Below are positions 25,556 to 64,000 of a stretch of DNA of 64,000 nucleotides, piece by piece. The notes beneath the pieces were generated by a model, which made no database searches, was not told where the DNA came from, and worked only from the letters and a program-made list of their open reading frames with translations. Position numbers and translations under genes: made by a program. The DNA is from Margaritispora aquatica (Eukaryota; Ascomycota; Leotiomycetes; Helotiales; Discinellaceae). How positions within the stretch are numbered: the stretch's first letter is position 1; the number at the start of each line of letters is the position of its first letter. The stretch covers positions 150,779 to 214,778 of the forward strand of contig VJWN01000039.1 in NCBI GenBank assembly GCA_007644065.1, in the 5' to 3' direction.

Positions 25556-27556
25556 CTATTCCTTGCCATCCATCGATTCCGCATTCACGCTCTTCATATT
25601 ACATTTCTCCTCGACGATTTCCTCACCGCCAATTTTCTCCTCAAGAAGTTTCTCTTCTTCGGCGTTCTCTTCCGTTACTTTCCCTCCAACTCCTTTGGTT
25701 ACATCTATTTCCGCGCCATTCGCTTTCTGTTCGTAAAATGCTTCCCCGTTGGCCTTCTCGAAGTTCAACTTATCTCCTTGAACTCTTTCCCCATTGACTT
25801 TCTCCTCATTGACTTCCTCTCTATTGCCTTCCTCTCCATCGACCTCCTTTCCATTGACTTCTTCTTCACTGACTTTCTCACTACTTACTTTCTCTCCACT
25901 TACTTCCTCCCCACTTACTTCCTCTCCAATTACTTCCTCCCCACCCACTTCTCCCCCATTAGCTTCCTTTCCATTGACTTCCTCTCCATTACCTTCCCTT
26001 GCACTTACTTCCTCTTTACTTACTTCCTTTTCACTTACTTCCTTTTCACTTACTTCCTTTTCACTTACTTCCTTTTCACTTACTTCCTTTTCACTTACTT
26101 CTCCATCAGCCTCCATTCCCTTCACTTCAACCCCATTTGCTTCAATTTCATTGACTTCCTCTCCGTTTATTTTCCCAGACTGCTTCAACTGCAAATCACC
26201 AATCGCCACTGTAGCAGGTTCAGTAACTTCCCATCTCCATCCCCAACTGTCTTTAACGGTACCCTTCTGAATATCTAACAAGATTTGGCTTAGCTGAAGG
26301 CACACGGGACCCGGCTTTACGGCGCTACCCTCGCCGCTATGATTAAATACAAACGTCTCATCTGTGGATATCCGATGAATTGATGCAATTGGCACAATAG
26401 ATGCTGCAGTCCCAACCGCCAGTACCTCTGTGAAATAGCGGAGCTCGGAGTAGTGGATCTTTGACGAGGAGACGAGTCAGTTCTCGGAGCTTCAGTGATG
26501 GGATAAGTGAGAATGGGAATATGAATACATACCTTGCGTTTTTCCACGACCCAACCTAAGCTCGCTGCAATTTGGGCAATAGAGTCACTTGTTACACTGT
26601 CCACGATGTTCGTGCTATCTGGGATGCACAACGTAGTTTTGGCAGCTCCATCTCTTCTGACTCCAATGAAGCCAGATGTGCTAAACTCCTCTATCTCACT
26701 TTGTGTCCTACTGTCTAAGTGGAGAGTCAATCCGTACCCCATTTGCCTTGCCTTACCTTGCCATCTTATGCATGGCGCATAGTTACCGCCGACCTTGTAT
26801 CCTCCGGTACCGCGCGGTGCGCTTCGGTCAAATTCTTCCATCACAACCGCGGGCATTGGCTGAATGCCATGGTAGGCATTACCCGGCTGTGTGTACACTG
26901 CAAAGGTGTACTCACTTGGTGGGGTCAAGCCTAGGTTACCAGCAGAGCCGAAAACCACAGGACGGATATACATGAGCGCTGACGCTGAGTGAGGAGGAAC
27001 ATATTCTGCGTTACAAGCAACAGCAAGATTCACCGCCTTCAAGTATGTATTCTCGGGGATGGGAGGAATTGAGACACAGGAGCTGCTGTTAGCCAGACGC
27101 TTGGCGTGATATTGCGGGCGGAAGATGTTGATAGTATCTGTAGGGGAGCGGTACGCTTTCATTCCTTCATACGCTTGCTGGCCTGTAGGGTTGTATCAGT
27201 TTCGGTTTGAGTCTGGGTATGGATGTAGGAAAGTCCTTGGATATTGTTACCATAGTTCAGACCTGGCGCCAGGCCGTGAACCTTGATGTAAGGATCCTTA
27301 ATTAACGTAGGCTCTGTCCAGACTCCCGTCGCAACGTTGTAGCGAGATTCAATGTGACCATTGTCTACCTATGTTTAGAGACGAACAATTGTAGTGATGG
27401 AAATATTAGATCGTTCAAACCTTCGGTGATGGTGCTTCCAAGGGCGGCCCAATCTGCGAACTCGTTAGAATTTATGAAGTAAAATCATTTCTCACGCTGA
27501 GACTCACTAATACCTTCCAAAGGTTTGGGAGGAAATGTAGATGTAGCGTGAGGCAT
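25556..27556 (-). CDS. Branched-chain-type amino acid aminotransferase with acidic repeat tail
   Basis: Five exons: 27556-27514, 27453-27421, 27364-27251, 27182-26533, 26458-25556; 580 residues. PLP fold-type IV features: DPYIKVHGLAPGLNYGQQAY, GTGGYKVGGNYAP (the lysine should hold PLP), LHLDSRTQSEIEEFSTSGFI and a substrate-loop EVLAVGTAAS. It catalyses 2-oxo acid to L-amino acid transfer with glutamate. Beside a dedicated FAS it probably makes a 2-amino fatty acid or a branched residue for the NRPS, as TOXF is thought to do in HC-toxin biosynthesis. Residues 1-361 cover the usual enzyme; residues 362-580 are an extra E/K/V/G-rich tail of EVSEK and EEVNG-like units. It is divergent with FAS alpha. 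The two small 5' exons are the least certain part. Confidence 0.88.
26026..26100 (-). repeat. Five perfect 15-base tandem repeats inside the aminotransferase
   Basis: CCTTTTCACTTACTT occurs five times in a row, with decayed copies on both sides. On the minus strand it codes for repeated EVSEK pentapeptides. Being a multiple of three, gain or loss of units keeps the frame, so length variation between strains is likely. Confidence 0.95.
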
Positions 27557-28493
27557 TTTGCAGTATTGAACTTTATGATACTTGCTGAACAAATGTTTTC
27601 GAGGGTTCCACGTCAAGAAAAGTCAAGTAGTTGAGTAAGTAATATACAAATGAATATCTCGTCTGTGGTACTAGCATCTTTATCGTTAATTTGATATATT
27701 ACACAGCATGTAACAGGCGTGCGTTTGTGTCTTGCAAAGCGAGCTAAACTCGACACGATTTCTGCCGGTTAATTCTGACCGTTCTGAGGCGCAGAAGCTA
27801 AGCAACAGGGTTATTTTTATGACACAATGTGCGATATTCCAATTCAATTCATTTATTCATGACTGTGTCAGTGTCAGTAAGAAATGATCATTTAATCATT
27901 TAAAGAGATTATACCTGTGTGTGCTAATATTACCCCCACGATGACATTTAGGGGGCTTAACGAGGTTCGCTTAGATGGTCCAAGCCGCCACTTAGTCAGA
28001 AAATGATTAGGCCACTTTCTCACCACACTTGAATGTCCAATCTTGCTTTGCTTAGGTCATTTTATGAGATATTTCAAACTGAATCCCGATTCACGATATT
28101 TTATATTTTCTTTTGTCAGATTTTTGATTTAGATTTGGCTGATCTATACTCCCCTGAAAACAACTGAAAATAACAAATGAAGGATTCTGGCCCCCACCAC
28201 CCTGACCTGATGCACTGCCGTGATTGTGCTCCTCGTGCCCCTCGCGCTCCAAAAGGACTGCGGCCGATAACCCTCCCTGTGCAAGAGCATTCCCAAGGCA
28301 CACCAGACTAGGTAGTTTTGATGGCTTTAACAGAGCTTGATATGGCACGCACGCTGGATGGATTGATTTCTACGCCTTGGCGAGCTCAGTCACAGAAAAT
28401 TTTGTACTTTGTCTCTTTGAAAGTAAAGGTAGGGCTTTATTGTGATGCTTAGGTGAAGACTTTTTTGTTCGCACACTCGTACTTTTGGTAAAG
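27557..28493. promoter_or_regulatory. Divergent promoter region, aminotransferase / FAS alpha
   Basis: 937 bases between two start codons facing away from each other. AT-rich, especially 27,640-27,920 and 28,060-28,130. CCACGTCA at about 27,609 is one base from the TGACGTGA (reverse TCACGTCA) element I recall for the apicidin regulator. No gene is called; small frames at 28,091-28,348 and 28,370-28,623 are unsupported. Co-regulation of the two genes is an inference from arrangement. Confidence 0.45.
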
Positions 28494-31400
28494 ATGCATT
28501 CCGAGATAGAACAGCAATTGGGATATACGCTTCTGGTCGAGCTTCTATCGTGAGTAACGAAACTTTGAGTGTGCTTAGGATACAGCAATTAACTCTACCA
28601 ACATAGATATCAATTTGCTTCACCAGTCAGATGGTACGTGGGCCAAATATCCCCATAAAATAGAATAAGCGTTCACAAGCATCGACTCTGAAGCATTGTG
28701 TGACTTAATAAACGAATGCCAACATAAATCTAACTTCTTATCAGGATTGAAACTCAAGATGTTTTGCTCAAAGAGCTGCAGATTCAGCGTCTGGTTGAAA
28801 TCGGGCCCTCCGACACCCTGGCTGCGATGATGAAGAAGACGTTGGCATCGCAGTACCATGTTTCCGATACTGTGAGCTCAACGAACAGAACAGTGTTATC
28901 CTACGCACGAGACGCTCCGAGAATTCATTACGACTTGAATGCCTCACCAATACCCAGTCAGCGGAAAGAATCATTGGCTAAAAAGCAGATATCAAAGTCT
29001 TCCGAGAAATTACAGTCTACTTCTGGCAATACGACTGATATCCCAACCATCCAAGTGACGACGCCTCAGCCTCCCACATTAATTCAAGAAAGTGCTCCAG
29101 TTTATGAATTGCCGGACGTATCTACATCGGCGGAGGATATCGTCATCGCAATTATGGCGCCCAAATTGAAGAAGGCATTTGCTGAGATCAGTAAAGAGAA
29201 ATCAATTAAGCAACTCGCTGGAGGTAAGGTCCATTGGTTATTTATGGTGGTTGATTCCGGAAATAAAGTACAAACGCTGACTTTGTCTTACAAACAACAG
29301 GCAGATCTACACTCGAAAACGAAATTGTTGGCGACATCAGTGCAGAGTTCACCAACGTTCCCGACGGCCTGGAAAATATGACTGTGGAGGAACTCGGCAA
29401 AGCATTAACTTCTTCCGGTTTCAGCAAGCAGCTAGGCAAGACATCTACTGTACTGATCAATCGGCTCTTCTCGCTCAACATGCCAGCCGGGTTCAACACC
29501 CAGCGAGCTAGAGCCTTTATGAAAGAGCGCTGGGGATTCCAGGCAGGACGCCAAGATGCTGTTCTACTTCGTGCGACAACGATGCAACCTCCAGCTCGTT
29601 TCGCTGCCTCTTCAGAAGCGGAGAATTTCCTGGAGAATATGGTCACAAAGTATGCTGCAGAGCTGAACCTGGACATCGGAGCACTGTCAAGAGTTCAAAA
29701 ATCCGTCTCATCCAATAGTAATAACAGGAGCCATGCGAGATCTATCGTACACGACGAAGAAACGGTTGTTAGCGAGAAGGACAAACTAAGCTGGAGACGA
29801 GCAAAACTCGAAGCTCTATCAAAGCGCATGCAGATCGATCTTCGTGCCGGCGATAAAGCTCATCTGGCCATGAAAAAGGAGCGCGATGACATGCAGAGAG
29901 ATATCGACGACTTGACTGCCGAGCTTGGTGAAGTATTTTTGAAGGGTATTTCGAGTTCGTTCGCAACCGTGAAGGCGCGTCGGTACAATTCAGCATGGAA
30001 TTGGGCACTCCAGGACTTGATAGAAGTATACCACGGTATCTTGCATGCATCTTTAACACCTGATGATCCCCACCTTCTCAACCGCTGTATCTTGATTGCT
30101 AGTCGTGCGAATCCCCGCTTCCTTCGCGTATTAAATCAGATCGACTCAGTCCCTTCTGGATCTCTGAATGGACAAGATATCAACGCAAGGGCAACCATCC
30201 TGCATCTCAAGAATCTCTGCAAGCAATTTTCAAACAGCGGGTTTGTACCATACACATCTTTCACCGACATCTTCAGCCGGGCACCACGGACGACGATTGA
30301 CCAACACGGTCACGCCATCTATGATGAGGTACCACGTTTGATATGTGACGAGATTCCAGCACTCAAACTCAAAGTAAAGAACAAGTCACAGAACTTTGAG
30401 GTCGACGATGATCTGACTCAACTATTTGTTGGACTCTTAAACAGTGCTCGCAAGAATGGCGCCTCGTTCAAAGGCAAGAACGTGCTTATCACAGGAGCAG
30501 GCTTGAACTCTATTGGAAGCGAACTCCTCAAAGGTCTTCTCGCAAGTGGCGCCAAGATTATTACGACTACCAGCAGTTACTCACGCAAAACCTTGAAAGC
30601 TTATCAAAAGATCTACATGGAATTTGGTGCCAAAGATTCAGAGCTAGTGGTTGTGCCGTTCAACCAAGGTAGTCAAAGAGATTTAAACGCCCTTGTGGAC
30701 TATATCTACGATCCCATCGACGGACTAGGATGGGATATTGACCATATACTCCCGTTTGCCGCCACGTCCGAGAATGGTCGCGAGGTTGATGGAATTGATT
30801 CCAAGTCTGAACTCGGTCATCGAATCATGTTGACCAATACTTTGCGTCTACTTGGGGCCGTGAAGAAGCAGAAGCAGCAGCGAGAGTCTTTGTGTCGACC
30901 TGCACAAGTGGTGTTACCATTATCGCCAAATCACGGTGCCTTTGGTAGTGATGGGCTGTATGCCGAATCCAAAGCTGCCCTGGAAACGCTGTTTGATAAG
31001 TGGCATTCAGAGAGCTGGGCGCCATTCCTATCAATATGCGGAGCATCGATTGGATGGACGCGAGGGACAGGCCTCATGGCGGGGAATGATTTTCTTGCCA
31101 TGGGCATGGAGGAGCACAAAGTTCGGACTTTCACGCAAGCAGAAATGGCTTTCTACATCATTGTACTTATGATGAACCCAATCGCTATCGAATGCGATGA
31201 CAAGCCTATATACGCAGACTTGACAGGAGGTCTAGACTCTGTGTCTGATCTTCCCAAGATGCTGATTAACATCCGAACTGATATCAATGAAGAAAAGGAG
31301 ATTCGCCTCGCACTCCTGCAAGAAGAAGCGATTGAGCGTGCCGAAGCTGATACAATTCAAGAAAAAGCACCTCAACTCGAGTTACCAAGGCCGCAGCCGA

Positions 31401-33670
31401 ATGTGCAACTCAAGTTCCCTACACTACCTGATTGGGATACCGAAATCGAACCCTTGCATCAGGATTTGAAAGAAATGGTGGACCTGGACAGTGTTGTTGT
31501 AATTACTGGCTTCGGGGAACTGGGTCCATGGGGGAACTCGCGTACACGCTGGGAAATAGAAGCAAACGGTACTTTTTCGGTTGAGGGTTGCATAGAAATG
31601 TCTTGGATCATGGGTCTTATCAAGAACTATGATGGACAACTAGACGGCAAAGAATACCATGGTTGGATCGATGCTAAGTCAGGAAAGCCAGTTCATGTCG
31701 CTGATATGAAAGAGTTGTATGAGGCGCAAATACTTGAGCATTCCGGTATACGTCTTGCGAAGCATGAGGGAGAGAGGCCAGATACACTTCTCCAGGAGAT
31801 TATTGTTGAACACGACCTTCCACCGTTCTCTGTGCCTAAAGATTTGGCCATCCAGTTTGAGGCTGAGCATGGTGACAAGGTTGATATCGGCCCCGGAGAA
31901 TCAGAGGAAGAATACCTTCTAACTTTTAAGAAAGGCGCCTTGCTGATGCTGCCGAAGTCGCTTGAATCTATTCGACGAGTGGTGGGTCAGATTCCAGAGG
32001 GTTGGAATCCACGAACATATGGTATCCAGGAGGATATCATATCGCAGGTCGATCCTATTACACTTTATGCTCTTACCACCACAGTAGAGGCATTACTAGC
32101 TTCAGGTATTACCGATCCATTCGAGCTGTACAAATACATTCATGTTTCAGAGATCGGCAACTGCTTGGGATCAGGCTTTGGTGGTGCTTCGTCATTAAAG
32201 CAGATGTACCGCACTCGCCACTTCGACAAACCCGTACAGAGTGACATCTTAGCCGAGAGTTTCATCAATACGACACCGGCATGGGTAAACATGCTGCTCT
32301 TGTCAGCTTCGGGCCCGATCCGTACCGCTGTAGGAGCTTGCGCGACATCGATTGAGTCGCTCGAAACTGGCATGGAGACTATCATCACGGGAAAAGCAAA
32401 AATGTGTCTTGTTGGGGGGGTTGACGACCTTGATGTCACCGTGTCCACCGAGTTTGCGAATATGAAAGCAACTGTGAATGCAGAGAAGGAATTCGACAAG
32501 GGTAGAGATGCAGCGGAAATGTCTCGACCAACTGCTTCAACGCGCAGCGGGTTTGTGGAGTCGCAGGGGGCAGGCGTACAGATCATTACCTCCGCAAGAC
32601 TTGCGCTAGATATGGGCTTGCCAATTCATGGCATCGTTGCTCTCGCATCAACCGCAAGTGACACCATAGGCAAATCCGTACCGGCGCCAGGTAAAGGGAT
32701 CCTAACCAATGCATCCGAGAAGGTATCGAGGTTTTCCTCGCCACTGCTTAACATCCAATATCGCCGTCGCCAACTAGACGTACGAATGAACGAGATCCAG
32801 AAATACACAGAGCTCGAATTAGATCTGATTGCTCAAGAACTCTCGACAATCACTCAGCACTCAAAGGATAGAGCAATCGAAATCAGCCAGCTTGAATATC
32901 GCAAAGCATACATTGGCAGAGAAGCACAGCGTCTTACCAAAAGCGCTCTCTGCGACTTTGGCAACGAGTTCTGGAAGAACGACAACAGCATCGCACCCAT
33001 ACGTGGTGCGCTTGCAGTCTGGGGCCTCGGCATTGATGACATTGACTTTGTGTCCATGCACGGCACAAGTACAAAGCTAAACGATATCAACGAAGCACAA
33101 GTGATCCAACGTCAACTCACCCACCTGGGTCGCAAACCTGGGAGTGTCGTAATGGCCGTTTGTCAAAAGTACCTGACAGGTCACTCCAAAGGCGCGGCAG
33201 GCGCTTGGATGCTCAACGGATGTCTTCAGGTACTCGACTCGGGACTGATCCCCGGAAACCGTAACGCGGACAACATCGATATCGAGCTTGCCGAAAACGA
33301 CTTTCTGGTGTTCCCGAACCGCAGCATCCAGACCAGTGCTGGGTTGAAGGCGTTTAGCCTGACGTCTTTCGGCTTTGGGCAGAAGGGCGCGCAAGCGATT
33401 GGTGTGCATCCGCGTTACCTATACGCGGCCATTGCCAAGACGGAGTTTGACGAGTATAAAGAGAGATTGCGGCAGAGGAAGAGGAAAGCGAATGCATTTT
33501 TTCAAAATGCAATGCCAACCAATACCCTCTTTGTGGCGAAGGAAAGGGCACCCTATCGAGCTGATCAGCTTCCGGGGGTTCTCTTGAATCCGGATGCAAG
33601 GGCGATGGAATCAAAGGAGGAGGGTGAGGAGCTTTATTACGAGGATGAGTTGATAGATAATCTGATTTGA
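28494..33670 (+). CDS. Fatty acid synthase alpha subunit lacking the phosphopantetheinyl transferase domain
   Basis: Four exons: 28494-28549, 28607-28633 (27 bases), 28745-29223, 29301-33670; 1,643 residues. Splicing the three small exons gives LLSYQFASPVRWIETQD, the standard alpha-subunit start. Domains in order: an MPT-completing segment; ACP with QLAGGRSTLENEIVGD (Ser about 190 takes phosphopantetheine); ketoreductase with LITGAGLNSIGSELLKG and catalytic YAESK (Tyr about 741); ketosynthase with VGACATSIES (Cys about 1201), SMHGTSTKLND and YLTGHSKGAAGAW. Housekeeping alpha subunits are near 1,850-1,890 residues and end in a PPT domain; this one stops right after LNPDARAMESKEE, so that domain is absent. 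A dedicated secondary-metabolism FAS making a short or medium acyl chain is the best reading. Confidence 0.95.
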
Positions 33671-34251: not shown

Positions 34252-37200
34252 TTAGCCTACCGCGCTACTTCCACTCCCATCTCTGTATAACTGCTCGAAT
34301 ACCGTTCCCTCCCTAGCTAAAAGCTCTATGGGATTCGCAAACTCTACAAGGATACCCTTATCAAAGACAGCTACCTTATCAAAATCCAAAATCGTATGCA
34401 GCCGATGTGCCACAACGATCAACGTCTGTGTCCGAAATCGTGTCCTAAGAACACGCTGCATCAGCGCATCCGTTTCCAAGTCCACGCTCGACGTCGCTTC
34501 ATCCAGCACCACGACTCCGCGGGGCTGCCGAAGGAGTGCACGGGCGAGGCAGAAGAGTTGGCGTTGTCCATGAGAGAGGAGTTCTGGCTCCATGGGGGAA
34601 GAGAGACCGTCGGAGAGGGCGGCGATGGTGTCCCAGATACCGAGTTCGGAGAGAACGGAGCGCATCTGCGCGTCGGTAGAGGAACCGAGAGGGTCGAGAT
34701 TGAAGCTCACGGTGCCGGGTGCGAAGTATAGGTCTTGAGGGAGGCATGTGAGGCGTTCGCGGATGAGATCTGGGGGCAGGGTTGAAAGATCGCAACCATC
34801 GACCGTGATGCGGCCGGAGGTTGGATCAAGGAGGCGAAGTAGGGTGGATATTAGGGTGGACTTGCCACTAAAATTGGTGTTAGAAGATTCACTTATGAAT
34901 TATAGGCACAGTTGCTAATTTTAGGCGATGGATTGAGTTTGGAAAAAGACTTACCTTCCGCTGCGGCCACAGATGCCTATTTTCTCTCCAGGTGCAATAG
35001 ATAGACTGACTCCTTGCAATGCGGGAGCGCCACCGACGCTGATAACCCGTTAGCTTTCTTCATACATTGATTAACAGGTCTGAGCTTACCCATATGATGC
35101 AGTTACATCTTCGAATTCCACCGCGCCTCTCGCAGGCCAGTCTTCTGATGGTGGCAAGAATAGTTCCGGCTCGGGCTCTGAAAGAGTCTCAGAAGAGAAT
35201 TGGTGAATTCTTGAAACAGCACCTATAGATGTTTCAAGCTTCGTCCAGACAATGACAACCGACATCAATGTTGAGGAAAACTGGATCATATTCACTAACG
35301 CTACGCCACCAAGGCCAGCACTTGTTGTTGTTGAACGTAATTGGATCATCAATGCTACGAGGATGACCGCAACTGCTGCAGCAATGAGACCCAGAACAAG
35401 GGTCAACCACTGTTGTACGCTGTACAGAAGATACAAAGGTCTCTGAGATGCATCGAGAGCATCGATAAACTCCTCTTTAAACTTGTCTTGCCAATGAAAT
35501 GCTCGGATGGTCGCTCGGCCTTGGAGAGTCTCAAGGAACAGCGAGTACAGTGGGCTCTTGGCTTCAAGATCAAGGAGTCTCAGTTGCCGAGAAGTTCGCA
35601 GATAGTACCTTTGTACCAGCCATAATACAAGGAACACGAGGACAAATGCAAGGCCAACATAATGTGAGGCCACAAGGATCAAGATTGCCAACGCGATAGC
35701 ACCAAGAGCATTAGCGCCGAACAATAGTAACGCAATAGGTAACTCGGCGTCAACAAGCTGGAGATCCTGGCTAAAATGATTGAGTGTGATGCCTATGTCT
35801 GTGGTACTGAAGAATTCCATGGGCGCTTTGATGACCGTACGAATTAGCTGATCATGTAGGTAGTGTCCAGAGGAAACTACCATGATATTCGCGACATGCC
35901 TGGCGCCGAGAAAAAGAGCCAACAAAAACGCAGCTTGAAAGCCAGCGTAAACGCCGACGTAGTACCCAATATCTTTGTTGGGTTCGCGTGTATTGAATTC
36001 GGACCACCAACTCAACCACACCGTCGGGAAGTACTCCAGGCCGACAAAAAGCAGCTCGTAGAGAATGAACAGAATAGTGTTGAAGACACCTGTAGCTTTG
36101 AAGTAGTACAGGTACACTCGCTTATTGCCTAACTGTGCAGTTGGTGGTGGCGGAGAAACTCGTTCGTGAGATATCTCACTCTTCTTGCTATCATCCGAGA
36201 CCCAAGCCGAATCTGAGATTGGACTTGTGGATCGTACCTCGACTGATTCGGTGCTATTCGTATCTCCAGGGGTGAATCCAAAGCTTCGGACGTAGCTGCC
36301 AGTCTGCCAATTTAACTCCTCAAATGTACCTTGCTCGACAATTTCACCAGCACGGCCCAGCACGATGATGTGATCCGCCATTGGGAGAAAGCGCGCTGCA
36401 TGAGTTGCAAGAACCACGGTACTTTGAGTTCGTTGGAGGAGCCCTTGCTTGCCGAAACAAGCATCGAAGACCGATTGCGATGTTGTTGCGTCCATACCAC
36501 TCATCACATCGTCGAATAGGGCAATGCTATTTCTCGCATAAATTGCTCTTGCAATAGCCACTCTCTCTTTTTGCCCGCCACTAAGACTGATGCCTCTGCT
36601 CCCAACAACAGTTTGATCACCATCAGGAAGATGAAGCAAATCTGCGTCCAAGCTGCAACTACTTACGACAGACTGATACCAAGACTGGTCGAAAGGTGAA
36701 AAGCCGACAATGTTTTTTCGGATTGTTGTATTCCTAAGCCAAGGACTTTGGTCGCAGTACCCAATATCTTTAGCCGTGACAGCCACCGTGCCTGATACAG
36801 GTCTGATCTCACCAAGAATAGCCTTGAGCATAGTGGACTTTCCACTAGCTACAGGTCCGACGATCATAGTGAGTTTATTAGATTTTATATTGATGTTGAG
36901 ATTTCTGAGCGCAGGAGCCTCAGGGTCATTCCAGCTGAAGCTCGCGTTTTTTAACACGATTGCATCACAGGCTGTAGGACAAGGAGGCATCTTTATTGAT
37001 TCCGATGAGGAACCGTAGTTAGCTTTCTCATCAAGTACCTTGAGGTTAGAAAATGATACTGAACCTGAGACCATGGAGGCCAGGGTGACAGTGCTTTTGG
37101 ATATCGGAGGAAGTAGTGAATATCCTCGTCTGGAATCAATGCGATTCTCAGATGTCATGAACTCTCGCACCCTGCTGAGACAGGCAAAAGCAGACACAAG

Positions 37201-49900: not shown

Positions 49901-49978
49901 CGATTGAGCTGGGATTAGCAGGGTGTATGTATCTTCTGGTAGATGGTGAAAAATAAACCTTTGCTATCTCGCGACATT
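46976..49978 (-). CDS. Sterol-glucosyltransferase-like UDP-glycosyltransferase with C-terminal extension
   Basis: Three exons: a 19-base first exon 49978-49960 (MSRDSK), 49897-49165, 49085-46976; 953 residues. The N-terminal GT28-like domain has NIVIHVVGSRGDVQPFLALA and FESFVERAGIEFFSIGGDP; the UDP-sugar site has HCSAVIHHGGAGTTACGLEM and PTVVVPFFGDQWFW. This matches ATG26/UGT80 sterol 3-beta-glucosyltransferases, but the PH/GRAM region of true ATG26 is missing. The C-terminal 400 residues hold a Ser/Thr-rich linker and a glycine-rich block (GLVAAGKGFGYGLYDGLTGL, then VGKGLGGVVFKPSAGACG) like membrane-contact/Vps13-Atg2-type C-termini. It may be a resident sterol or lipid glycosylase, or act on the cluster product; position alone does not decide. 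Confidence 0.87.
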
Positions 49979-51241
49979 GTAATTACTGTGTGCTGACTGG
50001 CATCAATTTCCGTACTATTGGCTTTGGCTTTGGTATGTTGAGTTGCACCTAGTAAACCTCTAGTAAACCTTTCGATGATGGACAGCTCGCTCCGTCTTCA
50101 CTGTAACTGTGACTGTAGCCTAAGTTAAGCGAAGCGGGGGATCGTTGTTGGTTCAGGGGGGGGGCTTCGTGGCCAACGTAAAATAAGGTACTTTGTTTGT
50201 GGTGGTGGTTCATTGGGAATGTTTCATTTTCCGCCGACACGCAAACAGCCCTCACCTCATCCTTTACTTAGATCTCCCTGGAGTCAAGAGGCTGAACTGC
50301 TTGACTGAGGTCAGCCAGGTTTTCTTACTCAGAAATCAGACTTTAGTTGCATAGGTACTTTTTAATTCACTGCCCCCCCAAAAGTCATGCCTCCTCATTC
50401 TCACTAAAACCTAAGGTATCGCACAAGCGCAAGCACAATCCTGACATTGTCTGATCACTATTCTTTCGTGGGAATGAAATGTGCCACATGTTGTTGCTGC
50501 ACGGAATCTTTGCTCCTTTAACAGGGGGGGCGGGTTCTTAGCCATTGTTATTATTATTATTATTGGCGGCACACCAGCTGCGCCGTAAAGCCTCGTAAAC
50601 CAACCTAACAACACACATCCGCCAAGGGAGGGAGGGAGCAGGCATGCCAAGAAGTATACCAATTCTGGCGTGGTGCAGGCCGCTTAGTTGCCAAACATCG
50701 GCTCCATATTGCATATGCATATGCAAAGTACATCCTGCATATGCATCGTACGTACTTTTCATATGCATCATACTGCATGCGCATAGTATGGCGGGGGCCG
50801 AAACAGGGGCCGCAAATACGACGAGGAGGAGGCTCATGCCAGGGCAAAGCTCGTGGAGATGGAGGTTGAGTTGCTTCTGCAGTGTTTCGAAACAAGAGTC
50901 TTCTCGGATAAAAGCGTAACAGCAAGCATGGCCATTCCACTCGGGTGGAACAAATGCTTGACAGAAAAAGAAAACAAAACACGCACAGATCACGATTTGG
51001 TATGGTATCGTATCTGGACAATTAATCCCCTGACGATTTTGCTTTCTCCCACAATGCACCTCTCTCCGGTAAACTCGTAAAGCTTTCTTGTTCACGGCTC
51101 ACGTTGGCGAGGTACGAGAAATGCACTAGTAAGAAGCGACATCAGTTGATAGATTAATTGAACAACCACTCCTTCAATCAATGAATTACAAGATCCTCCT
51201 TTCACGTCAGGACTTCTTCTATGATCTTAGTTTGAAACCCC
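49979..51241. other. Intergenic with ATGCAT palindromes
   Basis: Upstream of the UGT and downstream of the bANK gene. It contains a G9 run near 50,156-50,164, CCTAAGGTA near 50,410, a (TTA)n patch at about 50,545-50,565, and a cluster of ATATGCAT/GCATATGC palindromes at 50,710-50,785. A TCACGTCA octamer is near 51,203. Overlapping small frames here show no domain. Confidence 0.5.
50710..50785. repeat. Cluster of ATATGCAT/ATGCATAT palindromes
   Basis: Within about 75 bases, TGCATATG or ATATGCAT occurs about four times, plus GCATGCGC. The density is far above surrounding sequence. It could be a regulatory patch or just low-complexity sequence. Confidence 0.55.
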
Positions 51242-54421: not shown

Positions 54422-57400
54422 TTAAAAGAATGCGATGATCTCTGGATTTAAAAAACCAACCTTCTGCAACGCATCACCAATGATTTTCGAGCCCGTGAGT
54501 TGAAACACCCTTTCAAAGTATGCACGGGAGACCTCGAAAGGCGTAGCAGTCAGATTGGGAATGTATTTCCCAGTTAGCCGATCAAGATCCAGAGCAGTTT
54601 GCGGTATCTTCTCGTAGAGATGTTGTCTGAACGAAGAAACCCCTGCTTCCAGATAGGAGCTGTGGAATGGCACGTCAATGCCAGTCAAGGGGATTGTGGC
54701 GATTCCTCGCTTCAGGCCGGCGATTTTCAATGTTTGCGATGCTGGTGCTTTATTGAATATGGTGCGAACAAGTGCATGTAGAGGGGATTCAAGAGTCTCG
54801 AAACTAAGTTGAGAAGCGAGTTCCATCAAGGAAAGTCTGAGCTTGTGCGTATGATCTAAGACGTCCCCGAGGCACTTCAAGGCAAGTAGCTATACAGTCA
54901 GCAATGTTTGCAGTATTTGAGAATAGATTGTCATACATGACCCGCGCACACATACTGCTGCCCAGCTATGTTGAAGTTGACGACTTCCAGGAGGGTAGAT
55001 GTTACTGAGGCAATAGCACGCGAAAGGTGTTGCAAACAGGGGCCGTCGATAGCTGCAGGCACATTGTTTAGTAAGATGAACAGAAGAGGAGTCGCAGGAC
55101 ATGGTTGTCTGCACAGAGTTTCTCCAAAGCTCTATGGCAGAAGTTTACTTACGCTTTGATAACCTGGCTGGATTGACCGCGCACATTCCAAAGTCAGATC
55201 TACCATCTTCGTCACGCTCAACTGCGAACTGCATTGTTAGCCCACGGTAGAAAACGATTGACATAAGTGCCTCTATCGGAAGGAGCTCTGCAACTGCGCA
55301 TAGAGCTGAGTATTCGCCGAGAGAGTGCCCTGCGTAAGAACTGTTCTTAGAGATCAAGCCACGACATGCCATGTCCTTGTAGGCGGCGATTTCCATAAGA
55401 GTCAGAGCAGGTTGAGTAAATTGGGTGGCAAAAAGTAGGCCTGCAGGCGAGGAGAATGTGTAAGAAGCACTCGCCTCATTGACATCAGGGAAGCATCGTT
55501 GCCGGAGAATGCTGCCGTCTGCCGCGATACTCGTAAACGCGAGGTCCATATACTTTTGTCTAATGTTGCGGCCTCGGCGCCCTCCAAAATAAACAGTAAG
55601 CTGCTTGGGATTGTTCTTGACGATATTGGTGATTCGGAGTCCTGTGGGAAACATATTAGAACCCTTAATTATGCCTCGCAAAAGAATTGTGCTCACCATA
55701 GGTTTCCAAAAAGTGCTTATCAGCACGATCCCAGACATCTCTCGCTACTTCACTTACACCGTAAAGTTCCATGCCCATGCCAACTTTTTGACTACCCTGA
55801 CCGGTGAAGAGATACGCTGTCTTTGGTGGATCAACCTCTGCTTCGCCAAACAACACAGTCTCCCCAGACGCAAGCTTCGTGACCTCAAACTTGATGATCC
55901 GAGTGCCTGCTACCATGCCAATGTGGTGGAGTGAGAGCTGAAGTCTATCTCTGGGTAACATCATGCCAGCGAAAGAGCAGTGGAACGATTTGAAGAAATT
56001 GGCGTTAGACGAACGTAGTTGCTGCTCGATGATTCCTCGCACACGTCCGCTAGCATACATGCCATGCGTTATTGTACCTGGTAGCGACGCGTAATTCGCG
56101 ATGTGTCTCGAGATGTGAATTGGATTGTAATCTCCAGAAACAGCGGCATATGGCTCGTTGGAGTCTGGCAGCTCAATGATCATGTCTTCGCTGCCCTCGA
56201 AGAGAGGACGTGGCGTTTCAAACATGACTCTAGCTCGTTCAGCTTTGCCTTTTCTTTGAAGATAGCTGAGCACTGGGTTGTTACGACATTCTGTAGCAAT
56301 GTACTCGATAGAGCCTAGGCGTTTTACCAATTCAGACTCAAGTATGCCCTCAACCCATCCAGTAGTTTCCACATCTTTGAGCAAGCTCTTACGATTACAT
56401 GACTGAATTTTAGTCTGCAGGTGAAAAACTAGAGAGGTCCGAGGCTGTAGGAATTCGAGCGCAGATTCAACGGCATGAAACCATGGTTTTGCCTTGAGGA
56501 TAGCTACATCACTTGGTGATTCGAGTCGAACATGCATCGGCTCTTCTTTTGTGATCTGGAATGTGTTTTCGTGATCTTTGTATGTGCCGCGGAAAAGAAA
56601 CTGGCTTTTGATATCCATTACTGCTGAGCCACTTCGAAATATACGGCCGCGTACTTCGATCATCTTGCCCGAAGTCTGATTTAGAACGGCCGTAACTCTT
56701 GCCGTAGTTTCTAGGATATCTCCCTCAGCAATTGGTGCTTCTTCTGGAACTATGCGATAGCTATTTGAAAGGTGCACAAGTTGTAGCAGATCGCCATGAA
56801 TTTCAGGTGCAAAGAGAGGCTGCATAAGTGGCTTCCATGCTGCGACAATCGCAAAATCCATCGGAGCATTCAGACGTTTCCCTATAGGGTCTGCAAAAAC
56901 AGAATCAAGATTTTGTAGTGTGGTAGCCAGTTCTTTGATATCGTGTGCAGTTACATGAACTTTGCCACTGTGGAATTCGCTATGGATCGAAAGATCTTTT
57001 GCCGAATCATTCATCTCACCAAACCAGACCTGTTGGTAGAACGAGCGGATACGTTCCTCACGGTCTTCCATCAGCTCTTGAATTGGAGCAAAGCTGAACT
57101 CAGGACAGTACTTGTATTTCAGAAGAAGTTTAGCTCGCGGCTTGCTGGCCGTTCTGTGCTCGTAGAAGCAAAGCTCGATTATATTCGTTTGTCTGGATCG
57201 TACTTGAACCACTTTACTGGACCCGCCATTAGAATTGATCTCGCTCAGGCATACTTCAATTTCACCGGGCGTCGCAACATTGTTCATGTGTGCAAGGTTC
57301 AAGCTATCTTGTTGAAACAATCTTCGAATCGGATTTTCCACAATCTTTCCATCTTGCACGATTGTCTTGCAAGTGAAAAATGCCTGCCTCCAGTCGCCTT

Positions 57401-60400
57401 CGGTACCCGCTAGGACATGCAACTTGGATTCCAAATCAGAGGACTCATTAATTGGGCCAGGATCCTCAATATCAAGGCCGAAGTACTGCACAACAGGAAC
57501 AGTTGAATCATTACCAACGTACTTTCCCTGGATGAGCCGGTCAATGAATCCTTTGTGTAAGCCGTCGAGTAGGTCTTTGACAGGCTCATCCATAACATTC
57601 ACATACTTGACCGCCACAGGGCCCTGTAGGATGCAGATCCTGCCAACGTCTTGCCCAGGAACAGCCTCCAGATGCTCAGATTGCCACAAGGAGTCCTTCT
57701 TGAACCACGTCTCAAAGTGCTCATCCAGCACGGGTACAAACGGGACTGGTTTCTGACCGCGTCGTCGACAGAGGAAGAGAAAATGTTGTACATCTTGATA
57801 GCTGATGAGATCCTCTGTCATTTGTGGATAACGCGCCAACAACTGTTCTGCAAAAACATTTGGGGTTTTGTGGAGGTCAAGATCAGCAGGCGATCGCAAC
57901 AGACTCGGATTGCTGTGGCTAACATAACGCGACTCTGAATGGCGAGCAAAATCGAGGACCAACTTTTCAAGCGTGGCGTGTATCCAGCGCTGACTATGCT
58001 GGAGGAATAATAGTTGTATCAAGCGCTGGACAACTTCGGCATAAGTCATATCTTCGAGGTCAACAACAGCATCACCACTTCGGCCAAACCATACCTTCTG
58101 GTAATCTGTGTTTAGCTTTTCAATAATGTATCTCTTCTTCGCGCGGAGCAGCCTTAGGCGTTCCTGTTTGGCGGTCACGCTGAAGATCGTGGTGTCTAGT
58201 TCGGCCCAGAGTTGCATTCCCCGTGTCGCAAGCACATGCATAGGCTCACCCATTTCAGAGACTACTGTAAGCACACCTCCAGTCTGCTGCTTATAGGTTC
58301 CTGTCCATGCAGCATCTTCGACTCCTACAGCTTGCACGATGGCTTCTTTCGCCGCGTGGCTGGTCTTTGCCTCCTTGGTCGCCATGACACGACTCCCGAG
58401 TAGAATGCCATCGAACGGCATTGCAGCCAGGTCTGGTCCAAATTGCTTCGTCCATTCACCTGTCAAGTAAGGATAGGAGCCGTCGATATCTCCAAAGCCA
58501 CTGCCGGCCACGAGAATAATGTTTTGGTGTCTTCGGATCTCAGCATAAGAGTGTAGAATTGGGCCATGGAAATCCTCAAAGGAATGATGACCACCCGCCC
58601 TACCACCAGTCCATTGCAGGATGATGGGGAACTTTGGATGGGCTTTCGCGATCTCGATAACTTGACGGATCGCGTCTGTACTGCCTGGTTTGAAGCTCAT
58701 ATGCTTAAGTGCCGGGAAGGTCGCGATATAGTGTTTCGCAACGTCCTTTGAAGGCACCCCGGCCCCAAAGGTCAGTCCTTCTATGGGAACAGTAGGAGCC
58801 CCATGCCCTTCGGTGCTCAATCTCTCGAGCAATGCGAGTTGCCATTGCAGCGCAATTGGGTTGGCATAGATCAGATTGCAGGTGATGCCACGACCGGCAG
58901 GAATATTCTCAGCAACCTCACGCAGGGCAGCCTCCAGCAGGTCGGCACTTTGATAGCCGCCTGTTGCGAATTCAACGTGGAAACCTGCATTGATAATGGC
59001 TGAGACAAAGTCAGGGCTACAGGTGGTCGGAGTCATGCCCGCCACCATAATTGGCGGCAAACCAAGCAGACGACTCATCCTGGTGCTGACTATCAACTTA
59101 GGTAAGCAAGTATCAGCCTGCGACGTTTGCACCAGACGAGGACCATGATCACGACTCCAGTCAGGTCCATATACGACGCCGACATGGCTTTCTGCTCTCC
59201 CCTCTTTCCCCTCCCAATTCATGTTACTATAAGTACCTTGCGTGTTTGCACGGGTCAGGTTGATAGGATGCATAGGACGCATGTGTGCAAGAAATTCGCC
59301 CAAACCTCCAAAGGCTCTAGTACTATCAATTGCAAGCATACTCAGCACTCGTGAGCCGCTCCCTTCTTTTATCGCATGGATAAGACCTCCCACTCCAGTA
59401 CCGGCGCGCCCAGGTCCAAAATCTAATATATGCGTTGAACCGGGAAGCTTGGTCGCGGCGCCCCAGTAGAGAGGCTCTTCTACAATCATGCGAATGATGT
59501 TCGGTATAACATCTTCAGGTCCACATTCTTGTAGATCCATCCCATCCGCAGTGGTTGAGTAGACGGGCATATGAAGTTCAGATCCCCGGATGTGCAGTCC
59601 ATTCTGGGCCTTAACATCTCGAAGTACCAAAGCCACAGCTCCAGCTAGGTGCGAACTGTGGAATGGCGCTGTAATTGGAAGGAAACGATTTGTCACAGCT
59701 GGTCTTCTCTTGTCAAATGGGGTACGGGTTTCTTGTTGACCTAAAACCGCCTTGATACCTCGAAGATGAACATTAAATCCGTGGAGAGATGCAGGTGGAC
59801 CGGCAAGCACGAAATTGGTGCGTTCGTTGTGTAAGGCAATCTCTATTGCCGCGCTGGGTAGGAGATGGGCATTGATTTCCTGCACCAGCTTTTGAACGGT
59901 ATGTTGGGGAAGTTGCCGAACCGAGAGCATGTAGCTTGGTGCTCCCTCGCCATGTTCTAAAGCATTGGATGTCAACGAATGCCGAGCGGGAGGTGCATCA
60001 ACGACACTCTGGCTGCGACATCCAATAGAGAGAAGAAGCCCGATTGCATCCACGGCCAGCGTTTGAAAAGAGACCCAGTCCGTCGATGCTGCTATAACGA
60101 CCGCTGTCACGATTCCTTGCGAATGACCGGTTGCTCCAGAGAGCATGGAACGCATCCTCGACGGCGAAAGGCCTAACAAGCGAGTCACGACTTCGAATGC
60201 AGCAAGTTGAAAAAGCCCGATCAAAGGAAAGCTTACTGGCGCTGATGCAAGGTAATAAGCATCTGGACGTGTTTGCGGATTCTTCAGCCATAGCATAATA
60301 TCAAGAGACTTAGAGAAGTAGCATTGATAGGCTTCCTCGGCCGCAACCAGCTGTTGTAAATGACTGCATGTCTGTAGCAGCAGAGGCATGACAAGTGGCT

Positions 60401-61106
60401 CATACGTATTGTAGAGCTCGCTCAATAAGTCGAAGTAGTTGTCGGTACCTTGTCCTCCAAAAATTGCATAGACAACGGCCTTTTTATCACACGCTGCCTG
60501 GAAGAGCGCAGCTTTTGGTGTACCTGTCTCTTGGTCGTTTTGTCCGACGAGATATGATGCGCGGAAGATGGTGGAAACAATTTGCCTTTTGGTTTCTTGG
60601 GAGACCGATAGCGAGCCAACAACTGTGTGTACGTCGTGATTTTGGCCGACATGATGTTCAAAAGTTTGGACAAGGGCCTCGAGAACAAGAAACGAACCGT
60701 GCTCAGTATCGAGTGCATCTATTTCGGCGAATGATCGCTTCAAAACGAACCGCATAAAGCGTTCCAGAAAGACAGCCGTTGCTGAAGCTACATCGTTTCC
60801 TTCTGGCTCCTCATAGGGCGACTCACGGACTTCAAAGAGGAAGTCCTCACGCAGTTGTAGCAAGAGATTGCGACCTGAATTCTTGATAGAAATGGCGAGA
60901 CGAACGAGCCCATGGGAAATGAAGACTTGCCTTGCTCCCGACGACTTGATGGAAGAGGTAGAGCAGGAAGAAACCTTAGCAGCGATGGAGCTTGCAGACG
61001 ACGAGCACGACTCCTCGGAGCCATCAGAACACCATACTGTCGCAGCTTCTGAACTGTCCGAAAATATTGGCAGAGCCGCTGTGTCAACGAGAGTAGAAGC
61101 CGCCAT
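54422..61106 (-). CDS. Fatty acid synthase beta subunit
   Basis: Four exons: 61106-55697, 55641-55153, 55052-54937, 54889-54422; 2,160 residues. Domains in order: acetyl transferase with GATGHSQGIVTAVV (Ser about 329); enoyl reductase with PIMVAGMTPTTCSPDFV and ILQWTGGRAGGHHSFEDFHG (FMN site); dehydratase hot-dog region with SGDYNPIHISRHIANYASLP; malonyl/palmitoyl transferase beginning AYLFTGQGSQKVGMGMELY with GHSLGEYSALCAV (Ser about 1910). The layout is the complete beta-subunit one, slightly longer than the yeast protein. It pairs with the alpha subunit at 28,494-33,670 to form the dedicated synthase. Beta subunits are also part of the HC-toxin (TOXC) cluster. It is divergent with the NRPS. 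The start ATG at 61,106 is the first in frame. Confidence 0.95.
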
Positions 61107-62899
61107 CAATTTCGATTTAAAAATATGGTGGGCAATTGGACAGGTATAAAATGTCCCCAGGTCGTGCCAGGAGATTTGGGCTCTTAATAGGGTGAGAGCT
61201 ACGATTTTTTCAATGGATCAATAACCGAGGAGAGATTCAAGATTGGGCATTAGGGATTGGAGATTCGGATTGGTAGTGTTTGCCACAGGCTACCCGTGTT
61301 GCACCTAGATCTAATCTTAAACTCCTAGAAGCATAGAGCGAATGGAAAATTGCACAATAGGTGAAGTTGGATGCGCACAGCAGCGTACAAACCCACGAAG
61401 AAGGGTCCAGGGGAGAGGTTCTCTATTGTTTGCAAGCACATCACAGCTATTCACAGCTATGCTATCATTTCAACAAGAAAATTGGTCACTCGGCCACAAT
61501 CAATAATCCTCTCCATCCAGCTACCCGACTTAGACAGAGAATTCCGGAAAACCATAGAACTAGGGGTGACCAGACTCAAGCCGTAAGGTACATTGTGGTT
61601 GTTGAAATTTGCTATTCGATTATAGAGATCCTTCTGGCATTTTTCTTAGTAAGAAAGGTACGCTACGCCTAGCGATAATCTACGAGTAAGACACAATGCA
61701 TCCATATCACATGGCTTACGGAGGTAAACCAGATGACAAAACTTCCATCTGAACGTGTGCTAAAACCAGGTACACGCACCCTGGTTGGCAGCCAAAAACA
61801 GATCGATCGCCGGACAAGGACTTCAGATGGAATAAGCGGAACCATATATTTTACTACTTTACTACTTTACCAGGACTAAGCTCTCTTAGCGACGGGACAA
61901 TCGCCTCAACTATTATATTACTATTTTCTTACTATTACATTACTCAGATACGCACAGACACAGAGGTGCAGAGCGGCTATTCCCGTCCTCCCCGTCGTAT
62001 CTCGTATCTCGCTAATCTAATCCTAGCCGCCCCATGCGCCCCATGCGCCCCAACTTATGTCATTTTCTGACCTCCAACCTCCAGTCCTCCAGGCAGGGGA
62101 TGCGACGGGGGGCGAAGCGTTACTTTACTTGCGTTTATTCTAAGCTATGGTACCTTAGGCTAAGGTACTGATCCTTCGTCTGACTTTCGGACAGACTTCC
62201 GGATTCCAGTATGCATTCCAGTATGTCCTGTGCCCTATGCCCTATGCATCTAATCCCTTTTGAGTGTACCTCCATCGTATACTATTATCAGTTAAGTCTT
62301 ACTTGCGATATTTGGTCCAGGCTTAGCGATGACCCCTGCCAGCCCCCCCAACTTTGCAGATGCAGATGCAGATGCAATCCAATACTCACCTCACCACAGC
62401 TTCGGGATTTATCCGACATGAGGGAAGGGAAGCGGCTGGGATTGCTAAGGGATAGGCATGACTTGTGCTTGTCTCTGGCTCCGATACGTGTGATGCTTGT
62501 TTGCTGTTCGCCGTGAACTTTTTTCTGCTTGCAACTAGTTGCTCGACCTAAACACAACTTATTCCACCTCATCAGCGACTTAGTGATTTTGAACACCAGC
62601 TGCCCACCGTCGACGAGCCATCCAAGCCAAATAATCCTTTTTCTTGAAATTAACAGATTTGTATCAACTATAGCGACTCCAAGAAAACAGACGTGGCGGA
62701 TAAAAGTTACCTTCGAGCAATCGCGTTCGTACACCCTTCCTTGAAGTTCCCCTACAATACCTGATTATTATTACTGAAAAATCTCGCAGGAAGCTCCATC
62801 AGAATACCTGATTATCATATCATTACAGAAAACTTCTCACAAGAATAATAAAACCAAAAAAACTGTAAGTCCTTGAACATACTCGAACTCTAATTTGCA
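61107..62899. promoter_or_regulatory. Divergent promoter region, FAS beta / NRPS
   Basis: 1.79 kb between opposite starts. Features seen: TATCTCGTATCTCGCTAA at about 61,998-62,015, whose last ten bases differ at one position from ATCTCNCGNA; GGTACCTTAGGCTAAGGTAC, an imperfect palindrome at about 62,149-62,168; a (CCCCATGCG) duplication near 62,030-62,048; TGCAGA repeats near 62,356-62,373; and a duplicated AATACCTGATTAT at about 62,756 and 62,804. Frames at 61,361-61,672, 62,211-62,516 and 62,288-62,734 have no recognisable domain. Confidence 0.45.
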
Positions 62900-64000
62900 A
62901 TGGCCACTGCACAGATTGCTGTTTATTCGCAAATGGCGGAAATCGTTGATGATCCTCAACCATATGCTGGAAACTTCATGGCGAAGGACTTGGAGCCTTG
63001 CTATTTTCCTGTGCTCACCGATGGTGTTCTTACTGAGAGAGCAACTGAGAGTATTACGGTTCCATTCGACAACTTGCGCGCCGAAGCATTTTGCAAGGAA
63101 ATTCATATGAGTATCCCACGTCTTGTAAAGGCTGCTTGGATCTTGGTCTTGAAGTTGTATGCCGGTGCCGACAAACCATGTTTTGGCTACATCGATACGC
63201 AAGCTCAGAACGGCGTCCTCCTCTGCTATGCCGACACAGAAAATGGAGCAACAACAATCAGTCGCCTGTTGAAAGGGCTGCGACTCGAGTCCTTTACTTT
63301 GAATGAAGGGCATCAGAAGAAGCAGGATCAGATCCCATTCGACACTATCATCTGCTTGACCAGTAAAGCACCAACCTTGGAACATGGCCCAAATATACCT
63401 CACATATGCGTCGTCATCGATGCCACAGCAATGCTCACCACGATTTCTTTGAAGTTCCAAACGACTCACTTGGGCCCCGGGCATGCAGTTAGCCTTGCTG
63501 CAACCCTTTCTCAGACCATTCGTTCTATCATAGAAGCTTCTGAGATTGAAACTACAACTATTGAGCATCTAGACTTCCTTGGCGAGGATCGTAGGCATCA
63601 GATGATTCAGAACAACGCGGCTGTCCCTGAGCCTATACGAACTACTGCTCACGCACTTATCTCCGAGCGTGCTATCAAAAGCCCTAAATCACCTGCAGTC
63701 GATGGCTGGGATGGTCAATTCACTTACCAACAGCTTGAAAATATCGCATCTCGTCTAGCCAATCACCTCATCTCTCTCGGTATCGGACCAGAAATCATTG
63801 TTCTGCTTTGCTTCGAGAAATCTACTTGGACTATCGTCTCGATGCTTGCCGTCATGAAAGCTGGAGGAGGAATGACCTTCTTAGAACCTTCGCATCCCGC
63901 TACAAGATTGGAAGGCATAATTGCTCAAACAAAGGCATCAGTCATACTTGTGTCGCCAAAGTATGAAGCCATGTGGAAAGGCCGCGTCAACACCGTGATT
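62900..64000 (+). CDS. Nonribosomal peptide synthetase, 5' part (truncated condensation-like region then adenylation domain)
   Basis: The ATG at 62,900 starts an uninterrupted frame of 367 codons that leaves the window. Residues 1 to about 235 resemble the second half of a condensation domain (VPFDNLRAEAFCKEIHMSIP, RLVKAAWILVLKLYAGADKP, CFGYID). Such short N-terminal C-like pieces are common on fungal NRPSs. From about residue 250 an adenylation domain begins: AHALISERAIKSPKSPAVDG, FTYQQLENIASRLANHLISL, VLLCFEKSTWTIVSMLAVMK AGG, then HPATRLEGIIAQTKASVILV. The specificity-code residues and the rest of the modules are outside. With FAS, BCAT and bANK neighbours, it probably incorporates a 2-amino fatty acid. 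Confidence 0.93.
   Translation, partial: MATAQIAVYSQMAEIVDDPQPYAGNFMAKDLEPCYFPVLTDGVLTERATESITVPFDNLRAEAFCKEIHMSIPRLVKAAWILVLKLYAGADKPCFGYIDTQAQNGVLLCYADTENGATTISRLLKGLRLESFTLNEGHQKKQDQIPFDTIICLTSKAPTLEHGPNIPHICVVIDATAMLTTISLKFQTTHLGPGHAVSLAATLSQTIRSIIEASEIETTTIEHLDFLGEDRRHQMIQNNAAVPEPIRTTAHALISERAIKSPKSPAVDGWDGQFTYQQLENIASRLANHLISLGIGPEIIVLLCFEKSTWTIVSMLAVMKAGGGMTFLEPSHPATRLEGIIAQTKASVILVSPKYEAMWKGRVNTVI

What the first reader, a model, noticed from the sequence alone, without database searches (positions are those of the whole stretch)
25556..64000. FAS-alpha / FAS-beta / aminotransferase / NRPS / bANK cluster: a candidate lipo-amino-acid peptide pathway
The sequence shows both fungal FAS subunits, a branched-chain-type aminotransferase, a P450, a thioesterase, an ABCC exporter, a bZIP-ankyrin regulator and the start of an NRPS in about 38 kb. 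From known systems (HC-toxin TOX2, apicidin, aspercryptin), this set makes a 2-amino fatty acid and builds it into a small peptide; the first two products are cyclic tetrapeptide histone-deacetylase inhibitors. The gene order, the clustered thioesterase, RTA1-like and UGT genes are not an arrangement I recognise, so this could be a new family member.
Basis: partly seen in the sequence, partly recalled or inferred. Interest (0 to 1): 0.88.

Follow-up and report, generated by a model that had tools for sequence, protein, structure and literature searches.

The report
Giant fungal lipid-peptide assembly line
A fungus, probably of the order Helotiales, carries a gene set that appears to turn products of its own extra fatty-acid synthase into amino acids and build them into a ring-shaped peptide of ten or eleven residues, far larger than the four-residue toxins it was first compared with, using one assembly station whose loading part looks dead.

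Summary
The genes are real. On the held contig the NRPS, of which the window shows only the start, runs 41 kb: 11 modules (10 condensation domains, 3 epimerases, a terminal cyclising-type domain), no starter condensation domain, no room for N-methylation. It is not an HC-toxin/apicidin-type four-module enzyme. FAS alpha and beta, a BCAT-type aminotransferase and a bANK regulator support the lipo-amino-acid reading. Two Helotiales hold 69-78% relatives of both FAS genes, apparently on one contig each; three unnamed contigs seem to carry FAS and NRPS relatives together (by listed contig length). Ten adenylation domains fall into three code classes (2+5+3). The module-7 adenylation domain has lost five core motifs; one relative lacks it, while C7 (71%) and T7 (76%) stay as conserved as their neighbours. 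Best reading: a head-to-tail cyclic lipopeptide of 11 residues (10 if module 7 is skipped), D at 1, 10 and 11, with one or more FAS-derived 2-amino acids. Which positions carry lipid is not shown; no product is known. New variant of a known kind.

The parts
25556..27195 (-). BCAT-type aminotransferase (class IV); its apparent last exon (25556-26476) ends in a tail of about 220 residues, part of it a repeat array
   Evidence: Pfam Aminotran_4 1.3e-20; PDB BCATs to 1.6e-43, lysine motif in YKVGGNYAP; last exon assigned by eye, no Pfam match of its own; repeats
28734..33670 (+). cluster FAS alpha (ACP, helical, KS domains; no phosphopantetheinyl transferase domain detected)
   Evidence: KS pocket GSGFGG versus GSGIGG in the genome's likely housekeeping copy
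34252..38935 (-). ABCC-type exporter
   Evidence: ABC_tran, ABC_membrane, weak TMD0 below its cut-off
40420..41091 (+). RTA1-like membrane protein
   Evidence: Pfam RTA1 6.8e-27
41977..42762 (-). 4HBT_2 thioesterase-like protein
   Evidence: 2.7e-9
44165..45726 (+). cytochrome P450
   Evidence: 6.3e-52
46976..49982 (-). UDP-glycosyltransferase (GT28 N-terminal and EryCIII-like C-terminal parts)
   Evidence: 4.3e-19 and 1.3e-13
51242..53098 (-). bANK regulator: basic region AERKKVQNRIAQRTYR near 53000-53075, then ankyrin repeats
   Evidence: Ank_2 1.5e-54; basic region read
54422..61217 (-). cluster FAS beta (SAT, helical, meander, DH, MaoC and acyltransferase parts in three open frames)
   Evidence: 11 Pfam families in the largest frame, best 6.8e-143; relatives
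62894..64000 (+). start of the 11-module NRPS: truncated C-like N-terminus and A1; continues to C33:254747 (window-scale 103969)

Best explanation
A gene cluster for a head-to-tail cyclic lipopeptide. The cluster FAS makes a medium-chain acyl group; oxidation to a 2-oxo acid (P450 or an unlinked enzyme, inferred) and transamination by the BCAT-type enzyme give a 2-amino fatty acid (inferred from HC-toxin, apicidin and aspercryptin). The 11-module NRPS starts on a free amino acid (A-T-E), condenses residues 2-11, epimerises residues 1, 10 and 11 (architecture shown, chemistry inferred), and the terminal CT-type domain joins residue 11 to the N-terminus (inferred). The A-domain code classes are: one x5 (modules 2, 3, 5, 9, 10), one x3 (4, 6, 8), one x2 (1, 11); at least one takes the lipo-amino acid (inferred). 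Module 7 has no working A domain but conserved C and T domains; most likely T7 is loaded in trans by another A domain, giving 11 residues (inferred). ABCC, RTA1 and UGT serve export or self-protection, and bANK regulates (inferred).
For: 14 of the genome's 43 condensation-family matches lie in this gene: 10 C, 3 E, 1 terminal C; 11 T domains keep GGDS. The three C domains that follow an E domain carry [NS]HxxxDx motifs instead of the HHxxYDG of C3-C10; C11 is nearest to C2 (37%) and CT (31%). Successive C-family starts lie 3.2-3.4 kb apart where no E domain intervenes, too little for an N-methyltransferase. FAS alpha is distinct from a likely housekeeping copy at C46 (57% over the main stretch) and has F where that copy has I in the KS pocket. 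FAS pair with the same listed contig in two Helotiales. P0242, P0243 and P0244 list the same longest-contig length and source as FAS relatives P0005, P0126 and P0006. P0242 shows the exact codes of modules 2-5 in order. A7 motifs lost; A7 absent in P0244 with C7 71%, T7 76%, C8 68% identity.
Against: No A-domain substrate is established: two code searches found no paper. No enzyme for the acyl-to-2-oxo-acid step is assigned. No expression or metabolite data. Co-location of FAS and NRPS in unnamed contigs is inferred from equal listed contig lengths, not read. That the Venustampulla and Amylocarpus clusters hold the NRPS was not seen: proteins of that length fall outside the search's length window. 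The terminal domain's best solved matches are bacterial C domains; fungal TqaA matches more weakly. C2 and CT are only 24% alike. P0242's first and last visible A domains match our A9/A10 slightly better than A2/A5, so its module order rests on C domains and codes. The KS residue varies: two FAS-alpha relatives (P0123, P0126) have L.
Confidence: 0.65

Rival explanations
1. Module 7 is skipped: the chain is handed on without adding a residue, and the product is a cyclic decapeptide.
For: A7 has lost the A3, A4, A5, A8 and A10 motifs, including the A10 lysine; no stand-alone A domain was found in the cluster ORFs scanned, though AMP-binding proteins elsewhere in the genome were not examined.
Against: C7, T7 and C8 keep catalytic motifs and are as conserved as neighbouring modules, which skipping would not need.
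Confidence: 0.3
2. Chance neighbourhood: the NRPS makes a cyclic peptide of ordinary amino acids and the FAS serves another product.
For: No A domain is proven to take lipid; the aminotransferase and FAS alpha could be a unit of their own.
Against: FAS and NRPS relatives seem to recur together on three unnamed contigs; FAS beta and NRPS are divergent neighbours, as are the aminotransferase and FAS alpha; no PKS or other obvious FAS user among the ORFs scanned.
Confidence: 0.15
3. HC-toxin/apicidin-type cyclic tetrapeptide.
For: Same kinds of precursor gene and bANK regulator; [quoted passage not shown]
Against: 11 modules and three E domains against four modules and one E domain; no MFS transporter in the cluster ORFs scanned (MFS pieces lie about 20 kb to the left); Tox-box and Api-box each in 1 of 6 promoter regions.
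Confidence: 0.03
4. The terminal domain releases a linear peptide or makes an ester ring.
For: The terminal domain is called CT by position and similarity only; bacterial C domains match better than TqaA.
Against: Fungal synthetases that make cyclic peptides end in such a domain (PMC8949500, passages), though that does not prove the converse; a free N-terminus is available because there is no starter C domain.
Confidence: 0.15

Closest known systems
HC-toxin (TOX2) and apicidin (APS/APF) clusters, and the F. avenaceum apicidin-like cluster with an added FAS beta
   Same: FAS subunit genes, BCAT-type aminotransferase, bANK regulator, E domain after module 1; in F. fujikuroi the aminotransferase and FAS alpha genes share a bidirectional promoter, as the two are divergent here (PMC3729494, PMC4109984, PMC4237347; passages)
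   Different: four modules, one E domain, MFS exporter, other promoter motifs; here 11 modules, three E domains, a degenerate A domain, ABCC, RTA1 and UGT
Aspercryptin (atn) cluster, A. nidulans
   Same: BCAT-type enzymes (atnH, atnJ) presumed to make 2-aminocaprylic, 2-aminodecanoic and 2-aminododecanoic acids; more than one such acid per peptide (PMC8262921, passages)
   Different: two aminotransferases in the cluster; six-module NRPS and linear amino-alcohol product (recalled)
Gramillin (GRA1/NRPS8), F. graminearum
   Same: cyclic peptide with a 2-aminodecanoic acid residue (PMC10967133, passages)
   Different: seven modules
Cyclosporin synthetase
   Same: 11 residues, cyclic product (PMC6150023, PMC8949500; passages)
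   Different: seven of 11 residues N-methylated (PMC8949500); no space for N-MT domains here; no FAS in that cluster (recalled)
Synthetases with missing or dead A domains (syringomycin, albicidin; ferrichrome type recalled)
   Same: a module keeps other parts but has no working A domain (PMC8949500, passages)
   Different: in the first two a separate A-T protein fills the gap; none was found in the cluster ORFs scanned

Membership tests
HC-toxin/apicidin cyclic tetrapeptide clusters | four-module NRPS with one E domain | tested here: not met
   11 modules, three E domains
HC-toxin/apicidin cyclic tetrapeptide clusters | FAS subunit(s) and BCAT-type aminotransferase in the cluster | tested here: met
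HC-toxin/apicidin cyclic tetrapeptide clusters | bANK regulator (basic region and ankyrin repeats) | tested here: met
HC-toxin/apicidin cyclic tetrapeptide clusters | Tox-box or Api-box in cluster promoters | tested here: not met
   each in 1 of 6 promoter regions; the two published motifs differ from each other, so this test is weak
HC-toxin/apicidin cyclic tetrapeptide clusters | HDAC-inhibiting cyclic tetrapeptide product | not testable with these tools
   no metabolite data
Cyclosporin-type undecapeptide synthetases | 11 modules ending in a CT-type domain | tested here: met
   CT by position and similarity
Cyclosporin-type undecapeptide synthetases | N-methyltransferase domains | tested here: not met
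   spacing 3.2-3.4 kb
N-acylated fungal lipopeptides (echinocandin type) | starter C domain that attaches an acyl chain | tested here: not met
   about 250 residues without an HHxxxDG motif precede A1
A-less NRPS modules | conserved C and T with no active A domain | tested here: met
   by sequence only
A-less NRPS modules | T loaded in trans | not testable with these tools
   needs enzyme assay

The most novel reading that the evidence does not exclude
The synthetase makes a head-to-tail cyclic undecapeptide in which the five-fold code class, and T7 loaded in trans, all take FAS-derived 2-amino fatty acids: a ring carrying up to six lipid side chains, assembled with one obligatory A-less module.
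Probability: 0.2. Interest if true: 0.75.

Novelty: new variant of a known kind. Interest (0 to 1): 0.55.

Why it matters
A review of fungal cyclic peptides up to August 2017 (peptides with ester bonds in the ring excluded) names only cyclosporins as cyclic undecapeptides and seven cyclic decapeptides (PMC6150023, passages). A ring of this size containing lipid-derived amino acids would widen the HC-toxin/aspercryptin logic from small peptides to large macrocycles. The degenerate A domain here and its absence in a relative let the question of how an A-less fungal module is loaded, or skipped, be tested on natural variants.

Tried and rejected
Small cyclic tetrapeptide: rejected by the module count. 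Acyl-capped lipopeptide: rejected for lack of a starter C domain. Cyclosporin type: rejected for lack of room for N-MT domains. Arborcandins (cyclic decapeptides listed in PMC6150023) were considered; their composition was not checked. Substrate assignment by published code strings: 12 codes in two searches, 0 papers. A link to gramillin codes through a protein named GRA1 (P0328, four A domains) was dropped: it has fewer modules than the published seven and the name is presumably by homology. Tandem duplication of two-module units (modules 3-4, 5-6, 7-8): A domains fit the alternation, C domains do not. Literature on the Venustampulla or Amylocarpus cluster: one search's listing (15 of 475) held no paper with Venustampulla; one search found two papers, of which PMC8351168 was read in passages and has no occurrence of 'fatty acid'.

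Promoter motif: TGAGTAAGAAA-like sites (up to 2 mismatches) number 16 in 7,955 nt of six cluster promoter regions against 8 in 20,012 nt of control intergenic DNA; the reversed form and two scrambles gave 4, 1 and 5 against 8, 10 and 8. The motif was picked from the same data: an exact 9-mer in 4 of 6 promoters was matched by 3 of 60 shuffles. With mismatches allowed, the best 9-, 10- and 11-mers hit 6, 5 and 6 promoters in the real set and the same numbers in 8, 7 and 8 of 8 shuffles. Kept as a lead only.

FAS beta copy count in the genome: not obtained; the same genome search did not complete eight times.

Full report
What is there. The window is C33:150779-214778 of a 42.4-Mb, 49-contig genome. 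The aminotransferase carries a BCAT lysine motif and its solved relatives are branched-chain aminotransferases. The regulator has the basic region AERKKVQNRIAQRTYR followed by ankyrin repeats, as in bANK proteins.

The synthetase. The contig continues beyond the window. The NRPS runs from window 62894 to C33:254747, 41 kb, as five long open frames with intron-like junctions that were read by eye and not verified. Fourteen of the 43 condensation-family matches in the genome lie in it; the one listed with stops inside (C11) spans such a junction. By order and motif they are E1, C2 to C10, E10, C11, E11 and a terminal C domain. All 11 T domains keep the GGDS serine. C3-C10 share 37-46% and the HHAxYDG motif. 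C2, C11 and CT, each after an E domain, have NHAIVDG, SHALTDA and SHALIDG instead; C11 is 37% identical to C2 and 31% to CT, but C2 and CT are only 24% alike, about as much as each is to the C3-C10 group (20-24% and 18-26%). The N-terminus is a stretch of about 250 residues, C-like by eye, without the catalytic motif, then A1, so there is no starter C domain to acylate the first residue. Module spacing leaves no room for N-methyltransferases.

Codes. Reading the pocket positions by alignment, with positions recalled from the GrsA numbering, ten A domains fall into three classes: DVLFVGGIA/DVMFVGGVA (modules 1, 11), DVGY[CSA]GIIW (2, 3, 5, 9, 10) and DVAFVGCIY (4, 6, 8). None of these strings, nor six codes of relatives, occurs in the paper library. 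The substrates are therefore unknown. The five-fold class, exact or with a change, occurs in each of the four best-scoring relatives, P0241-P0244, and DVGYSGIIW also in the fourth module of two four-module proteins, P0245 and P0248, whose spacing suggests an E domain after module 1 as in HTS1; but a third such protein, P0246, has DVAFVGCIY there, and P0249 and its kin have DVAFIGSIH. This is a lead for a lipid substrate, not a proof.

Module 7. Its A domain keeps an open frame (520 residues between C7 and the T7 linker) but has lost the A3, A4, A5, A8 and A10 motifs, including the A10 lysine that the other ten modules keep; the A7 motif survives in part, as FKTGEL for YKTGDL. It is closest to the five-fold class (33-40%, against 28-31% for the three-fold and 28-29% for the two-fold class). 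In P0244, a relative from an unnamed contig, C7 is followed directly by T7: the A domain is absent in frame. C7 (71%), T7 (76%) and C8 (68%) are as conserved between the two as C9 and C10 (67-68%) and the other four T domains compared (65-78%). So the module has lost its loader but kept its carrier and condensation parts. Loading in trans and skipping both fit; conservation favours loading. No other relative with module 7 was available, so this rests on two sequences.

Relatives. For FAS beta, five of the 120 listed hits (526 matched) have 62-70% identity, the named ones being V. echinocandica BP5553_03038 (70%) and A. encephaloides (69%); the next is 49%. For FAS alpha, five of 120 listed (692 matched) have 61-78% over at least 97% of the query, the named ones being A. 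encephaloides and V. echinocandica BP5553_03047, both 78%. In each species the two FAS hits list the same longest contig. Three unnamed contigs (137,223, 93,621 and 61,695 bases) appear with both a FAS and an NRPS relative from the same source (NRPS search: 2602 matched, 120 listed). P0242 shows the codes of modules 2-5 in order and its C domains match C3, C4, C5, C6 best, the first only narrowly; its A domains do not each match the positional partner best. P0241 and P0243 look like a shorter synthetase whose C and E domains match C3, C9, C10, E10 and C11. The genome's likely housekeeping FAS alpha (C46), compared with the 120 FAS alpha proteins, is 91% identical to Lachnellula, Drepanopeziza and Rhynchosporium and 92% to one unnamed protein; the next of the 12 best shown are 85% or less. 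Taxonomy look-ups place Venustampulla, Amylocarpus and Lachnellula in Helotiales (the other two genera recalled), so the host is most likely a member of Helotiales.

FAS. The cluster FAS alpha lacks a detectable phosphopantetheinyl transferase domain, as do its 19 best relatives. At the KS position that controls chain length in yeast (M1251, recalled) it has F, as do V. echinocandica, A. encephaloides and two unnamed relatives (P0124, P0125); the other 11 relatives of the short kind compared have L, V or I (P0123 and P0126 have L), and the eight full-length (about 1,860-residue) FAS alpha compared have M or I, as has the C46 copy. This hints at a shorter chain, but no length can be read from it. 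A further FAS alpha lies at C47. The number of FAS beta genes in the genome was not obtained.

Mechanism and rank. Shown: gene set, domain order, degenerate A7, class pattern. Likely but indirect: recurrence of FAS with NRPS. Inferred: fatty acyl to 2-oxo acid to 2-amino acid, D residues at 1, 10 and 11, ring closure by CT, roles of P450, thioesterase, UGT, ABCC and RTA1. Compared with HC-toxin and apicidin it works alike in precursor supply and regulator type but fails the four-module test, so it is not filed as a member. It is a new variant of the FAS-fed NRPS kind. Multi-modular NRPSs of up to 11 modules new to the genus have been counted in F. avenaceum (PMC4237347, passages), so size alone is not new.

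Papers. PMC3729494, PMC4109984, PMC4237347, PMC10967133, PMC8262921, PMC7071103, PMC8351168, PMC8949500 and PMC6150023 were read as passages only; the rest were seen as search listings. That no product or cluster of this kind was found in print rests on those searches and on the code searches, within an open-licence library.

Noticed in passing
window 25791-26101: A 15/30-bp minisatellite lies in the frame that seems to encode the aminotransferase's C-terminus, giving a tail of about 220 residues rich in EVSEK/EVNGE-like repeats.
   Followed up: partly
G000:C47:2014299-2018879: A further FAS alpha, 42-55% identical by piece to the cluster's copy, so this genome has at least three FAS alpha genes.
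   Followed up: no
   Followed up: partly
window 27300-62895, six promoter regions: TGAGTAAGAAA-like sites are about five times denser than in control intergenic DNA; the motif was found after the fact and shuffles do not clearly exclude chance.
   Followed up: partly
window 12822-20662: Frames of a giant DUF6606/DUF3638/DUF3645 protein mark the left flank of the cluster; an FMO-like gene lies further left at 8239-9795.
   Followed up: no
C33:255931-263550: Right flank after the NRPS: alpha-galactosyl-binding lectin, DUF7730 and LysM genes, not obviously part of the cluster.
   Followed up: no
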